Assembly: GCA_034096865.1 (NCBI GenBank)
Contig: JAWQFJ010017447.1
Coordinates: 56,564-120,563, forward strand
Reading direction: 5' to 3'
Length of the DNA: 64,000 nt
Source: Theodoxus fluviatilis
Lineage: Eukaryota > Mollusca > Gastropoda > Cycloneritida > Neritidae
The notes below the pieces were generated by a model. That model saw only the letters and a program-made list of their open reading frames with translations. It was not told where the DNA came from and did no database searches. Of the stretch, positions 5,294-42,329 are shown one piece after another. The translations under genes were made by a program, and so were the position numbers. Each line of letters opens with the position of its first letter. The stretch's first letter is position 1.

Positions 5294-5538
5294 CTAAGAG
5301 CAGATGGCATCCTGGAGACGGCGTCTGGCTTCCCTGACCTTCATCTCCTGGCGGCGGATGTCATCTTCAGACACCATCAGGTGCTGCATGTGGGGCTGTG
5401 CTGGCTCAATGTTCACTCCAGGGTTCTTCTGGATGGAGGTCCGGCTGAAGTTCTGGCCCGTCACTGGACCAGTGTTGAGGTGCAGAGCAGCAGAGATGCT
5501 CTGAAGGACATTCTCGGTTGTCAAGTCAGGACCCACAC
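5294..5538 (-). CDS. mbd2/3: MBD2/3 downstream copy, exon 5 (C-terminal)
   Basis: Terminal exon of 245 bp after acceptor CTTGCCAG. It starts with GVGPDLTTENVLQSISAALH and includes the family's ITGQ-like PVTGQ, a KNPGV motif and the VSEDDIRRQE heptad region (MBD-C / coiled coil). The stop follows soon after the coiled coil, so the long acidic tail seen in vertebrate MBD3 is missing. Confidence 0.9.
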
Positions 5539-8500
5539 CTGGCAAGGACAGGCAATGATACATGGTCAACTATCACACAGTTCTATGCAAGTGCAAGCAA
5601 TGATGGTTTTGAAATGTCAAAATAGCCATCCTTTATTGTGTGCGTGTGTGTGCGCATATGCGTGCGTGCGTGAGAGAGAGAGAGAGAGAGAGAGAGAGAG
5701 AGAGAGAGAGAGAGAGAGAGAGAGAGAGAGAGAGAGAGAGAGAGAGAGAGAACACTATACTTTGTGATCTAGTCAGTCCAAATGTCAAATGAAAATCTCC
5801 CTCCAACAGTCAAAGAGAGAAAGACTCAGCAGCAGGAGCTATTGCAAAGAAGACGTGAAAGCTACCAATAGGACAGCACCTGCTCCCCATCCTGGTGCCA
5901 AAATGAAGATGCCAAGTCAATGTGTGAGGCCCAAGAATACATGAGCATGGACAGATATCTTTGGCGACTCCTGCTGCCAGGTGAAAAGTCTAATTTCTCC
6001 ACTGAAGTCATCAGATGATCAGATGAAACAGCACATGAATTGCCTGCAAGAACATTGCAGTCAGCTTCAATGTCATCTCTGGCTAAAGTTGCCAAGCATG
6101 TAGGTCAGCAAATCTGGTGCCCAGGTAGTGACTCTTACGAAACACGTGTGCTTTCTATGGGCAGGGTGTCTATGGCCAGGAATCCTTAACAATCCCATTT
6201 TAAGATTCATTTTTGACTCACATGCGAAGCAAAAGTGAGTCTATGTACTGAGCCGTGTCGTCCGTCCGTCCGTCCGGGCGTCCGTCCGGGCGTCCGTAAA
6301 AAACTTAAACGTTGGATTTTTCTCGGAGACTATTAAGTCTATCAACACCAAATGTGGCATGATGGTGTATGATGACAAGGCCTCAAAAAACATACATAGT
6401 GACTTGACCTTGCTTCAAGGTCAAGGTCACAGGAGCCATAAATGTGGTCTCAAAAACAGTCATTTTTCACATTTTCCCAATTTTCTCCCACGTTATTGAG
6501 AATGGCGACCTTAGCTACAAGTGGTATATAGGTCAAAGCAAGCCCTATCTTTTGATACCAGTTTGGTTGACCTTGCTTCAAGGTCAAGGTCACAGGAGCT
6601 CTTCAAAGTTGGATTGTATACATATTTTGAAGTGACCTTGACCCTGAACTATGGAAGATAACTGTTTCAAACTTAATAATTATGTGGGGCACATGTTATA
6701 CTTTCATCATGAGACACATTTGGTCACATATCATCAAGGTCAAGGTCACTTTGACCCTTATGAAATGTGACCAAAATGGGGTAGTGAACCACTAAAAGTG
6801 ACTATATCTCATGGTAGAAAGTGCCAATAAGCACCATTGTGCTTCCTATGTCTTGAATTAACAGCTTTGTGTTGCATGACCTTGGATGACCTTGACCTTG
6901 GGTCAAGGTCACATGTATTTTGGTAGGAAAAATGTGTAAAGCATTTCTTTGTGTATGATGTCATTGGTAGGTTTAGTTGTTTGACCTTGACCTTGAAGGT
7001 CACCTGAAGGTCAAGGTCATATAAAGGTCAAGGTCAAGCATGTGAGTCGTATGGGCTTTGCCCTTCTTGTTTTAATTCTTTTTGAATGACACTGCATGTC
7101 AATTTCTTTTGAACATAATGTGACTAGTTCCAGTTCAGGAAAGCCCAGACATAATGTGACTTGTTCCAGTTCAGGAAAGCCCAGACATAATGTGACTTGT
7201 TCCAGTTCAGGAAAGCCCAGACATAATGTGACTTGTTCCAGTTCAGGAAAGCCCAGACATAATGTGACTTGTTCCAGTTCAGGAAAGCCCAGACATAATG
7301 TGACTTGTTCCAGTTCAGGAAAGCCCAGACATAATGTGACTTGTTCCAGTTCAGGAAAGCCCAGACAATGTGACTTGTTCCAGTTCAGGAAAGCACAGAC
7401 AATAGTTTTCCATTTGCATCATACAGAAAGGGCTGCTGCAACAGAGGGAGGTCAAGGGGATGGATAAGGAACTGACAAACATTTTCATGGATGATGTCAC
7501 TCAGATCTAGATTTATATCATTTTCTGAGAAACTTCAGACAAGATTTCATGCTTCAAAAGGAGATCTTGTGGAGAGAAGTCTTGAACAAAGAAAAAGTGT
7601 TGATGTTTCTTTTCATAGGCGGAGGAGTGTTGGCATGTTTTTTGGTGTTAAAAATGGGATTTGGAGTCCTCTGCGGTGGCCTCTGCTTTATCTGGGTTGG
7701 GCTTATCTTTCAAGGTGACTGGAATGCAGGGTTAGATCCGAGTGATCAAACCATGTCCCCCAAGCCCTTACCTAGCTTCCTGGGCGACTTGGGGACATCC
7801 CTAGCTGAGCTACTGGAGCAGGCTCTTACAACCAGCAACCATGATTCCAAAGACGAGCAAGTGAGTCATCAGTGAAGCCTCTCGAGAGAGTATACTTTAA
7901 GGGGAAATACAGTTTACCCACCTTGGACGTTCCTAGGTAGGTCCATCGGCTGGATCATCTCCTTGCTGATGTCATAGGCCCTCAAACCCTGCAGCCTCTT
8001 CTCCCAGTACAACTGCAGGATTGGAAAGATAAGGAATGAAGTGGGGTGGGGTGGGAAAGATGCAAGGAGTGGACAGTGAAAATTGATGCGCGTTTGTAGT
8101 CCAGCAGTAAGTGCCGTTCAGTTCTTGCAAATATACTTGATACAAGAAGGGCAAAGCCCATACGATTCACATGCTTGACCTTGACCTTTATATGACCTTG
8201 ACCTTCAGGTGACCTTCAAGGTCAAGGTCAAACAACTAAACCTACCAATGACATCATACACTAAGAAATGCTTTACACATTTTTCCTACCAAAATTCATG
8301 TGACCTTGACCCAAGGTCAAGGTCATGCAACACAAAGCTGTTAATTCAAGACATAGGAAGCACAATGGTGATTATTGGCACTTTCTACCATGAGATATAT
8401 CTGCCGACAAGACTTCCAGTTCCTCTTCTCTTGGCTGCAAAGTAAGTCAACACTGTACAGCCCTCTGCTGTCTGTCAGTCTCTTGATCTGTGAGCAGCAC

Positions 8501-42000: not shown

Positions 42001-42329
42001 AGCAGCTCTCTTCAGGGTTTTTAGTGTGGCGTCCTCACATAAAAAATATCGGTTTATATCTTATCTGTCATGTCCAGGCTGCGTGAAAACGTATCACTGA
42101 AGTAGCAGGGACTCTGAGGGAGTTGTGTCCCTTTAAACGGCCATTACGGCAGCGATCTCTCATTCTCTGCCTACAGAAAAGAAACAAGTGCACACGTACG
42201 ATTGATAATAATGTGTACATACCTGATATAATAGACAAAGGACTTCCCAGCACATATGCCTTTTCGTCTGACAACCTCTTCTCTTCTCCATCCGCGTGGA
42301 AGCGGAAAATCTTGGCCCTCCGCTGACAT
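35765..42329 (-). CDS. mbd2/3: MBD2/3-like gene, upstream copy (five exons, intact)
   Basis: Exons on the minus strand: 42329-42223 (ATG), 40757-40639, 40286-40144, 39857-39776 and 36009-35765 (stop). They sum to 696 bp, 231 residues plus stop, with every phase consistent. Residues 13-70 form the MBD: GWRREEVVRRKG, VYYISPKGKKIRSKSQLW and LDFKTGKM. The Arg22, Phe/Tyr34 and Arg44 equivalents of MBD3 are kept (R, Y, R) while Asp32 is Phe. A diverged IRQTASIFKQ-type region (TRPILRGPVTVIRNHPD) and LLWIKRLEN block follow. The last exon is not homologous to that of the other copy. It is an acidic Ser/Asp/Glu tail of about 80 residues without the p66-binding coiled coil. Nuclear; likely a chromatin reader with altered partners (inference). 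Confidence 0.88.
36781..37609 (+). mobile_element. AGGTCA-rich element, copy 4
   Basis: Plus copy from GACTCGCATGCGAAGC to GGGCTTTGCCCTTCTTGT, diverged in the first third. It lies in intron 4 of the upstream MBD gene, and copy 5 faces it in inverted orientation. Confidence 0.85.
37871..38334 (-). mobile_element. AGGTCA-rich element, copy 5 (half)
   Basis: Minus copy holding only the half nearest the GAAGC end. It contains an extra ~55 bp near 38160, including a duplicated CCACATTTGGTATTGA. It shares substitutions with copy 4, so the two may derive from one inverted duplication. Confidence 0.8.
38731..39637 (+). mobile_element. piggyBac-like deletion derivative
   Basis: The ends CTCACTGGCAACGTAAC and GGTTAGGTTGCCAGTGAG are inverted repeats. 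They are bordered by TTGA at the left (38727-38730) and TTAA at the right (39638-39641), the piggyBac target site with one change. A second ACGTAACGCCC...GGGGCGTT pair lies subterminally at the left. The interior keeps only the start of a transposase. Confidence 0.7.
38938..39150 (+). pseudogene. piggyBac transposase N-terminal remnant
   Basis: Seventy codons with an acidic leader: EEGSDDEDAVMNLISDSDFE and DQLGETEDIDDQ, typical of piggyBac transposase N-termini. The DDD catalytic domain is deleted. Confidence 0.55.
39776..39857 (-). CDS. mbd2/3: MBD2/3 upstream copy, exon 4
   Basis: An 82-bp exon, acceptor TTTTTGTCTGCAG and donor TTTG/GTAAG. It encodes LLWIKRLENCFPIDVTDEVR and KRIHKNF. Three codons shorter than the other copy, same phases. 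Confidence 0.85.
40144..40286 (-). CDS. mbd2/3: MBD2/3 upstream copy, exon 3
   Basis: A 143-bp exon, acceptor GAGATTAG and donor CACAG/GTAAG. It encodes IAHEYDDSPIPLTRPILRGP then VTVIRNHPDSKTRHD. The PVTVIRNH motif is shared with exon 3 of the downstream copy, while IRQTASIFKQ is replaced. Confidence 0.9.
40639..40757 (-). CDS. mbd2/3: MBD2/3 upstream copy, exon 2 (MBD core)
   Basis: A 119-bp exon, acceptor CATTGTTTCAG and donor CA/GTAAGT. It encodes PKGKKIRSKSQLWKTLGRKV then HLGCLDFKTGKM. The second MBD half, closer to vertebrate MBD2 (GKKFRSK) than the other copy. Confidence 0.93.
40786..40970. mobile_element. Small inverted-repeat element (pogo/Tigger-like MITE)
   Basis: A ~185-bp sequence bounded by ACAGTAGTCGCTGCTTATTA and TTATAAGCGGCGACTACTGT, with an internal TTTTTATTAACCG motif at both sides. 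It lies in intron 1 of the upstream MBD gene. No clear TA duplication at the right edge. Confidence 0.6.
41150..41346 (+). repeat. Compound (CT)n(CTAT)n(CA)n microsatellite
   Basis: About 75 bp of CT, 45 bp of CTAT, then CA with GTGCACACACACAT interruptions. Confidence 0.97.
42223..42329 (-). CDS. mbd2/3: MBD2/3 upstream copy, exon 1
   Basis: A 107-bp coding part from ATG 42329 to donor ATCAG/GTATGT. It encodes MSAEGQDFPLPRGWRREEVV then RRKGICAGKSFVYYI. It ends in phase 2 so that AG plus T makes Ser of the SPKGKK motif. The start is the only ATG in frame near the conserved LPxGW. Confidence 0.9.

What the first reader, a model, noticed from the sequence alone, without database searches (positions are those of the whole stretch)
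5294..42329. Tandem MBD2/3 paralogues with complementary losses
Seen: two minus-strand genes with the same exon plan (119- and 143-bp exons identical in length). The downstream copy keeps the IRRQE coiled coil that in MBD2/MBD3 docks p66 of NuRD, but its residues matching MBD3 Arg22, Asp32 and Phe34 are Trp, Cys and Val. The upstream copy keeps Arg, Tyr and Arg at positions 22, 34 and 44 (Asp32 is Phe) but replaces the coiled coil by an acidic tail. One may recruit NuRD without reading methylation, and the other may read CpG without NuRD. Most animals outside vertebrates are expected to have one MBD2/3.
Basis: partly seen in the sequence, partly recalled or inferred. Interest (0 to 1): 0.8.

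Follow-up and report, generated by a model that had tools for sequence, protein, structure and literature searches.

The report
Twin methyl-DNA reader genes, spare exon
A nerite snail carries two side-by-side genes of the MBD2/3 family, which in other animals tether a chromatin-silencing machine to methylated DNA; one has lost its docking tail, and the other holds a spare half-domain exon that, if spliced in, should switch off methyl-DNA reading.

Summary
The tandem MBD2/3 pair is real. Both genes have five coding exons in the same phases. Gene A (42329-35765) has an MBD and part of the p55-binding region, but an acidic tail replaces the coiled-coil domain. Gene B (30775-5294) is the orthologue of the usual mollusc MBD2/3, coiled coil included. 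COX1 places the genome in Neritidae.

It used 28.5 kb (Trp, Cys, Val) and missed a start exon at 30775-30668 with Arg22, Lys30 and Tyr34. That exon has a 2-base deletion in this contig but is in frame (Glu for Asp32) on a second contig, probably the other haplotype.

The 28.5-kb exon is a 90-base, phase 2-2 exon with splice signals and no start codon. It duplicates half the MBD, kept its protein frame under selection for most of its history, and differs at four listed DNA contacts. I propose that skipping it gives a methyl-reading NuRD subunit and including it a non-reading one. Splicing was not observed.

Gene A is under purifying selection (13 synonymous, 1 nonsynonymous difference between copies) and resembles mammalian MBD2t. 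Asp32, invariant in 100 parsed homologues, is absent from all three exon-1 copies.

The parts
42223..42329 (-). Gene A exon 1 (107 nt, ATG at 42329): first half of MBD, MSAEGQDFPLPRGWRREEVVRRKGICAGKSFVYYI
   Evidence: donor CAG|GTATGT; same in C5460 with 2 synonymous changes
40639..40757 (-). Gene A exon 2 (119 nt): second half of MBD, keeps Arg44
   Evidence: identical in C5460
40144..40286 (-). Gene A exon 3 (143 nt): degenerate start of the p55-binding (MBDa) region, then VTVIRNHPDSKTRHDLVHG
39776..39857 (-). Gene A exon 4 (82 nt): LLWIKRLENCF..., keeps the Arg-Leu pair aligned with MBD2 Arg286-Leu287
   Evidence: PMC4381075 passages
35730..36009 (-). Gene A exon 5: acidic Ser/Asp/Glu tail in place of the MBD_C coiled-coil domain; stop at 35765 in this contig; in the C5460 reading the frame runs on to the equivalent of 35730
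30668..30775 (-).
   Evidence: (family D17)
28466..28555 (-).
   Evidence: 90/90 identical in C5460, acceptor ATCAG|A, donor CAG|GTCAGT
27794..27912 (-). Gene B exon 2 (119 nt): second half of MBD, keeps Arg44 but has Asn at the next residue (MBD2 Ser189)
17570..17712 (-). Gene B exon 3 (143 nt): LPIRQTASIFKQPVTVIRN, p55-binding region
   Evidence: only one copy matched in the assembly
7922..8012 (-). Gene B exon 4 (91 nt): LYWEKRLQGLRAYD..., Arg286-Leu287 equivalents kept
   Evidence: identical in C19530
5294..5538 (-). Gene B exon 5 (245 nt with stop): MBD_C coiled-coil domain, p66/GATAD2 docking helix
   Evidence: PF14048, 2.3e-26; PDB 7ao8_C 3.3e-14; 2l2l_B 0.022

Best explanation
This is a tandem MBD2/3 pair in a nerite snail. 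Gene B is the orthologue of the usual mollusc MBD2/3: its MBD binds methyl-CpG and its C-terminal coiled coil brings in p66/GATAD2 and CHD4 (NuRD). Between its start exon and its second exon lies a duplicated copy of the start exon, 90 nt long and in frame. If it is skipped, the MBD has Arg22, Lys30, Tyr34 and Arg44. If it is included, the strand next to the second half of the domain comes from a copy without the DNA-contact residues, so the protein should join NuRD without reading methylation. Gene A is a diverged paralogue that keeps the MBD and the Arg-Leu contact for the deacetylase core but has an acidic tail instead of the coiled coil. Like mammalian MBD2t, it should occupy methylated DNA without bringing CHD4. 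Shown here: gene structures, frames, residues, selection on A, long-term selection on the duplicated exon, no other MBD2/3 match in the assembly search. Inferred: transcription, alternative splicing, DNA and protein binding.
For: Gene models, phases and GT/AG sites. Pfam architecture. B exons 2-5 are 70% identical to Pinctada and Gigantopelta MBD2/3 over 99% of the query. Start exon with ATG and open frame in C5460. Duplicated exon: 90 nt, phase 2-2, no stop, 11 T before the acceptor's ATCAG in C5460, 90/90 identical between copies. Against the start exon over 26 codons it has 11 silent codon differences and 6 residue differences; 0 of 516 and 0 of 401 (after dropping runs with stops) simulated freely drifting copies had so few residue changes. 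The four MBD2 DNA contacts that fall in the segment, of six listed in one passage of PMC12466977, all differ from the start exon (4 among 6 changes, P=0.001). Gene A: 13 synonymous and 1 nonsynonymous difference, binomial 3e-8; tail alone 6 and 1. A DNMT1-like catalytic exon is present twice on contig C2 (named by eye); CpG observed/expected 0.37 and 0.35 in the two coding sequences.
Against: No transcript evidence for any junction. The start exon of B carries a 2-nt deletion in the window contig. B also departs at three listed contacts: Phe for Val164, Glu for Asp176 (start exon) and Asn for Ser189 (exon 2); A has Phe for Asp176. Residue Asp176 is Asp in 100 of 100 parsed homologues, so even the supposed readers may bind weakly. 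Of the four contacts changed in the 90-nt exon, two are not strict: Val164 is another residue in 35 of 100 and Tyr178 in 15 of 100 homologues. The simulations allow that exon to have drifted for the last 20-30% of its life (P 0.24 and 0.09). Its 90/90 identity is weak evidence: 16 identical runs of 110 nt or more occur between window 25816 and 43035 (in which the block with this exon was left out by the script's overlap filter). In the window contig the pyrimidine tract before it is short.
Confidence: 0.43

Rival explanations
1. The 90-nt exon is a relic: it was used for most of its history but is now always skipped. Gene B is then an ordinary MBD2/3 and the only novelty is the truncated paralogue A.
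For: Two residues invariant in 100 parsed homologues (Arg22, Asp32) and the mostly conserved Tyr34 (85 of 100) are changed in it; the simulations cannot exclude neutral drift over the last 20-30% of its age; the window contig has only a short pyrimidine tract before it.
Against: Open frame, phase 2-2, splice dinucleotides in both copies and 90/90 identity; neutrality over its whole history is rejected; the four listed DNA contacts are among its six changes against the start exon.
Confidence: 0.32
2. The 90-nt exon is always included. B is then a NuRD subunit that does not read methylation, with a displaced extra half-domain, as the first reader proposed in substance; A may be the only reader.
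For: Inclusion is in frame and Pfam then finds two MBD stretches (86 bits in sum against 66); the start exon itself has two changed contacts, Phe20 and Glu32.
Against: The start exon keeps Arg22, Lys30 and Tyr34, which would not be needed if its half-domain were always displaced.
Confidence: 0.12
3. Gene A is a decaying or silent duplicate without function.
For: Very long branch (3.2 changes per column), loss of the coiled coil, no close homologue among the 23 hits (101 candidates).
Against: 13 synonymous and 1 nonsynonymous difference between two genomic copies, tail included, in the predicted frame; frame open and splice sites present in both copies, though the last residues differ because of a 1-nt difference.
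Confidence: 0.04
4. C5460 and C19530 are not the other haplotype but a recent duplication elsewhere. The window's own gene B could then be a broken copy and the intact copy a separate locus.
For: Collinearity stops at window 43035 and 9328; the frame-breaking indels are on the window copy; the check on flanking DNA did not complete (tool unreachable).
Against: Same gene order, separate short contigs, collinear blocks mostly 91-99% identical (mean 96.6% over 17,189 positions), and 8 of the 9 exons matched found exactly twice (B exon 3 once), as unpurged heterozygosity would give.
Confidence: 0.09

Closest known systems
Invertebrate MBD2/3 (ancestor of vertebrate MBD2 and MBD3)
   Same: Gene B has MBD, p55-binding region and MBD_C coiled coil in the usual order; exons 2-5 are 57-70% identical to the named mollusc MBD2/3 listed.
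   Different: Extra in-frame half-MBD exon; Glu instead of Asp32; a tandem partner gene. PMC5240623 (start of abstract; passages) says invertebrates generally have a single MBD protein, MBD2/3.
MBD2t, the mammalian MBD2 isoform without coiled coil
   Same: Gene A keeps the MBD and part of the interaction region and lacks the coiled coil (PMC10310694 passages).
   Different: A is a separate gene with an acidic tail of its own and Phe at position 32, not a splice form.
Drosophila MBD2/3 with a 20-residue insertion in the MBD
   Same: An insertion in the MBD and changed contact residues; that protein does not bind DNA yet keeps the coiled-coil interaction (PMC5240623 passages), as predicted here for the inclusion form.
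   Different: Drosophila's insertion is glutamine-rich and lies within the DNA loop, and much of the helix is deleted; here the insert duplicates the first half of the domain and is optional in principle.
Vertebrate MBD2/MBD3 pair
   Same: Duplication with loss of methyl selectivity on one product while NuRD docking is kept (PMC5240623 passages).
   Different: Separate duplication; the proposed loss is on an exon rather than a gene, and the other gene lost NuRD docking instead.
Xenopus MBD3 long form (recalled; one search found no paper describing it)
   Same: From recall: an alternative insert in the MBD that abolishes methyl-CpG binding.
   Different: From recall: about 20 residues, not a copy of the domain's first half.

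Membership tests
MBD2/3 (gene B) | Methyl-CpG-binding domain PF01429 | tested here: met
   3.2e-18 on the spliced protein, C5460 reading of the start exon
MBD2/3 (gene B) | p55-binding region PF16564 with the Arg286-Leu287 pair | tested here: met
   5.1e-27; LYWEKRLQGL
MBD2/3 (gene B) | C-terminal coiled-coil domain PF14048 | tested here: met
   2.9e-28; aligns with PDB 7ao8_C (3.3e-14) and weakly 2l2l_B (0.022)
MBD2/3 (gene B) | Groups with mollusc MBD2/3 in a tree | tested here: met
   inside the gastropods, 90/91
MBD2/3 (gene B) | DNA contacts Arg22, Asp32, Arg44 | tested here: inconclusive
   Arg22 and Arg44 kept; Asp32 is Glu in C5460 and lost in the window's deletion; Ser189 is Asn, Val164 is Phe
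MBD2/3 (gene A) | MBD PF01429 and MBDa PF16564 | tested here: met
   6.4e-15 and 9.1e-11, MBDa from profile position 21 on
MBD2/3 (gene A) | C-terminal coiled-coil domain PF14048 | tested here: not met
   no match at E 0.001; exon 5 codes an acidic tail
MBD2t-like truncated reader (gene A) | MBD kept, coiled coil missing | tested here: met
MBD2t-like truncated reader (gene A) | Binds methyl-CpG, fails to join the GATAD2-CHD module | not testable with these tools
   needs binding assays
Cassette exon | Symmetric phase, splice signals, open frame | tested here: met
Cassette exon | Transcripts with and without it | not testable with these tools

The most novel reading that the evidence does not exclude
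Nerite snails switch their only full MBD2/3 between a methyl-reading and a non-reading NuRD subunit by splicing in a duplicated half-MBD that has lost its listed DNA contacts, while a tandem paralogue without the NuRD-docking tail competes for methylated DNA. They would thus achieve by exon and gene duplication the split that vertebrates reached with MBD2 and MBD3. The locus-wide loss of Asp32, despite a DNMT1-like sequence in the genome, would mean that the whole reader system has been retuned.
Probability: 0.28. Interest if true: 0.78.

Novelty: new variant of a known kind. Interest (0 to 1): 0.6.

Why it matters
Invertebrates generally have one MBD2/3, so how methyl-reading and NuRD recruitment can be separated outside vertebrates is open. 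This locus offers a second, apparently independent separation in an animal with CpG depletion and DNMT1-like sequence, and a concrete splice switch that RNA-seq and a gel shift could test directly. It also warns that the most visible exon 1 in a raw contig need not be the start exon.

Tried and rejected
Rejected: that gene B begins at the 28.5-kb exon (no in-frame ATG; internal-exon anatomy). Rejected: that the ATG at 28589 starts that exon (frame mismatch in the window; the codon is ATA in C5460). Rejected: that the equal 245-nt length of both last exons in the window is meaningful (the C5460 frame of A runs further). Looked for the mollusc SKR..KG..FDFARG insert exon: none on the minus strand at the threshold used, two weak plus-strand matches. 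Looked for two first-half domains in each of the 122 proteins held: none, but those are listed proteins, not genomes. Identity between the two copies as evidence for the 90-nt exon was weak.

I lowered the main confidence from 0.45 to 0.43 and the novel case from 0.30 to 0.28, and raised the relic rival from 0.30 to 0.32.

Literature: no paper in the library held MBD2, exon duplication and methyl-CpG together, nor Neritidae, genome assembly and DNA methylation together, nor MBD2, NuRD, mollusc and methyl-CpG together. Absence from print is claimed only for those searches.
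Full report
Identity of the source. The assembly (965 Mb, 19,668 contigs) carries a COX1 reading (contig C10175, code 5) that is 99% identical to a protein cluster represented by Clithon retropictum; the next hits are 94% or less. Clithon is in Neritidae, Neritimorpha. Whether the C10175 copy is mitochondrial or a nuclear copy was not examined. A tree of MBD2/3 places gene B inside the gastropods as a branch of its own (90/91), which agrees.

Gene A. Exons 42329-42223, 40757-40639, 40286-40144, 39857-39776 and 36009-35765 (stop in the window reading) join in frame with GT/AG sites. 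The spliced protein has an MBD (6.4e-15) and part of the p55-binding region (9.1e-11) and no MBD_C match. It aligns with MBD2 chain 7ao8_C through chain residue 303. Arg22, Lys30, Tyr34, Arg44 and the serine after it are kept; Asp32 is Phe. [quoted passage not shown] the preceding IRQTASIFKQP motif is not. A search of 5.8 billion proteins with the window reading of A scored 101 candidates and gave 23 hits, the best-scoring 48% identical over 59% of the query. Of these 23, 22 carry the MBD_C domain; the exception, Nucella P0121, is canonical in its first half. That search needs shared five-residue words, so a fast-evolving orthologue of A could be missed.

Gene B. Exons 27912-27794, 17712-17570, 8012-7922 and 5538-5294 code for a protein 70% identical to Pinctada and Gigantopelta MBD2/3. 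Its first coding exon is 30775-30668. In the window it has a 2-nt deletion in codon 32; in contig C5460 the same exon is 110 nt, in frame, and reads KTEVYYI. Whether the window difference is an allele or an assembly error is not known. The differences cluster: two substitutions and the 2-nt gap within about 13 bases, none in the 86 before.

The second copy set. Contig C5460 (31,530 bases) holds A exons 1-5, both B exon-1 copies and B exon 2 in the same order; C19530 holds B exons 4 and 5. Collinear blocks are mostly 91-99% identical, mean 96.6% over 17,189 aligned positions, exons included. I read these as the other haplotype, but a recent duplication is not excluded. The search with a canonical mollusc MBD2/3 scored 21 candidates and gave 17 matches at E up to 10: nine on the window's contig, six on C5460, two on C19530, none elsewhere. 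So no third canonical copy was found at that sensitivity. The Pfam MBD model alone found one more MBD, on contig C1535, which the MBD2/3 query did not match.

Constraint on A. Between the two copies, over 726 compared sites, there are 13 synonymous and 1 nonsynonymous difference (159.5 and 566.5 sites; binomial P 3e-8); exons 1-4 give 7 and 0, the tail 6 and 1. The codon with the 1-nt difference was left out. Read in the two other frames, with codons that contain stops removed, the tail gives 0 synonymous and 7 nonsynonymous, and 1 and 3. So the tail behaves as coding in the predicted frame and A does not look like a pseudogene. For B, exons 2 and 4 are identical and exon 5 has one difference, a nonsynonymous Arg-Gly in the coiled coil; B exon 3 could not be compared.

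The 90-nt exon. At 28555-28466 lies a copy of exon 1 that begins after an AG, ends before a GT, has phase 2 on both sides, is 30 codons long and open, and has no in-frame ATG. In C5460 the acceptor's ATCAG is preceded by 11 T; in the window by 5 T and purines. Put between the start exon and exon 2 it keeps the frame and gives two first halves of the MBD followed by one second half; Pfam then sees two MBD stretches. Against the start exon over 26 codons there are 11 silent codon differences and 6 residue differences, pS 0.78 and pN 0.145. Under a null in which this copy drifted freely since duplication and the start exon changed only silently, 0 of 516 and 0 of 401 (569 further runs with stops dropped) simulated pairs had so few residue changes. 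Drift over the last 75, 50, 30, 20 and 10% of the time gave P 0.005, 0.02, 0.09, 0.24 and 0.75. The start exon itself departs from that consensus at two of the four and A at one. Among 100 parsed homologues Arg166 and Asp176 never vary, but Val164 is another residue in 35 and Tyr178 in 15. PMC5240623 (passages) names the two arginines and the tyrosine as the residues that give methyl-CpG recognition, and reports that Drosophila MBD2/3, with an insertion in the MBD and changed residues, does not bind DNA but still forms the NuRD coiled coil.

Asp32. Of 122 proteins matched my pattern; in those, Arg22 is Arg in 100 and residue 32 is Asp in 100 (the 22 proteins that the pattern missed were dropped). 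The three copies in this locus have Phe (A), Glu (B start exon, C5460) and Cys (90-nt exon). B also has Asn where MBD2 has Ser189. A solved MBD2 chain, 7ray, has Glu at the aligned Asp; no paper on it was found. The exon-1 copies share Arg, Arg, Lys and Ile at four positions against the typed consensus, as expected if all three descend from one lineage-specific ancestor. The tree agrees (A+B split 86/63), but A's branch is very long and no AU test was run.

Context of methylation. A DNMT1-like catalytic exon (GGPPCQGFSGMNRF...ENVRNF) occurs twice on contig C2 (named by eye from recall). CpG observed/expected is 0.59 in the window and 0.37 and 0.35 in the two coding sequences.

How it most likely works. 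B-skip: methyl-CpG reader in NuRD. B-include: NuRD subunit without methyl reading. A: methyl-DNA binder without the GATAD2-CHD4 module, comparable with MBD2t (PMC10310694 passages). Steps shown: structures, frames, residues and selection. Steps inferred: transcription, splicing choice, binding. The proposal that the extra half-domain displaces the first one is inference from chain order and was not modelled.

Novelty. The individual ingredients are known: MBD2/3 duplication, coiled-coil-less MBD2, inserts in the MBD. The combination, and a duplicated half-MBD exon without contact residues, was not found in the searches named in the rejected-items section. Hence a new variant of a known kind.

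Noticed in passing
P0047 and P0025 (homologues): Nucella lapillus has two MBD2/3-like proteins (P0047, P0121); P0047 and an unnamed P0025 form a second caenogastropod clade (100/100) with Phe at position 34, as in vertebrate MBD3, suggesting an independent duplication with the same substitution.
   Followed up: partly
window about 35805 and about 30682: Both coding indels between the copies disturb the frame of the window contig, not of the second contig, which hints at residual assembly errors or a defective haplotype.
   Followed up: partly
window 52782-53645 (-) and 46296-47483 (+): A DDE_Tnp_4 transposase ORF (7.2e-40) and an ORF with a GIY-YIG domain: mobile elements upstream of the gene pair.
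   Followed up: partly
window 20011-24712 (-): Two long open frames (544 and 1081 aa) in the GC-richest part of the window with no Pfam match at E 0.001.
   Followed up: no
window 14247-15140, 7077-7403, about 1500-3200: Tandem arrays of 66- and 36-base units in gene B introns and of about 77-base units some 2 kb beyond gene B.
   Followed up: no
L026 (contig C5394): Intact methylase ORF with CpG observed/expected 1.46 beside a YidC-like membrane-insertase ORF (name recalled): probably a bacterial contaminant contig.
   Followed up: no
L001 (contig C1535:96757-96933): Another MBD match (29.8 bits) elsewhere in the genome, not matched by the MBD2/3 query.
   Followed up: no
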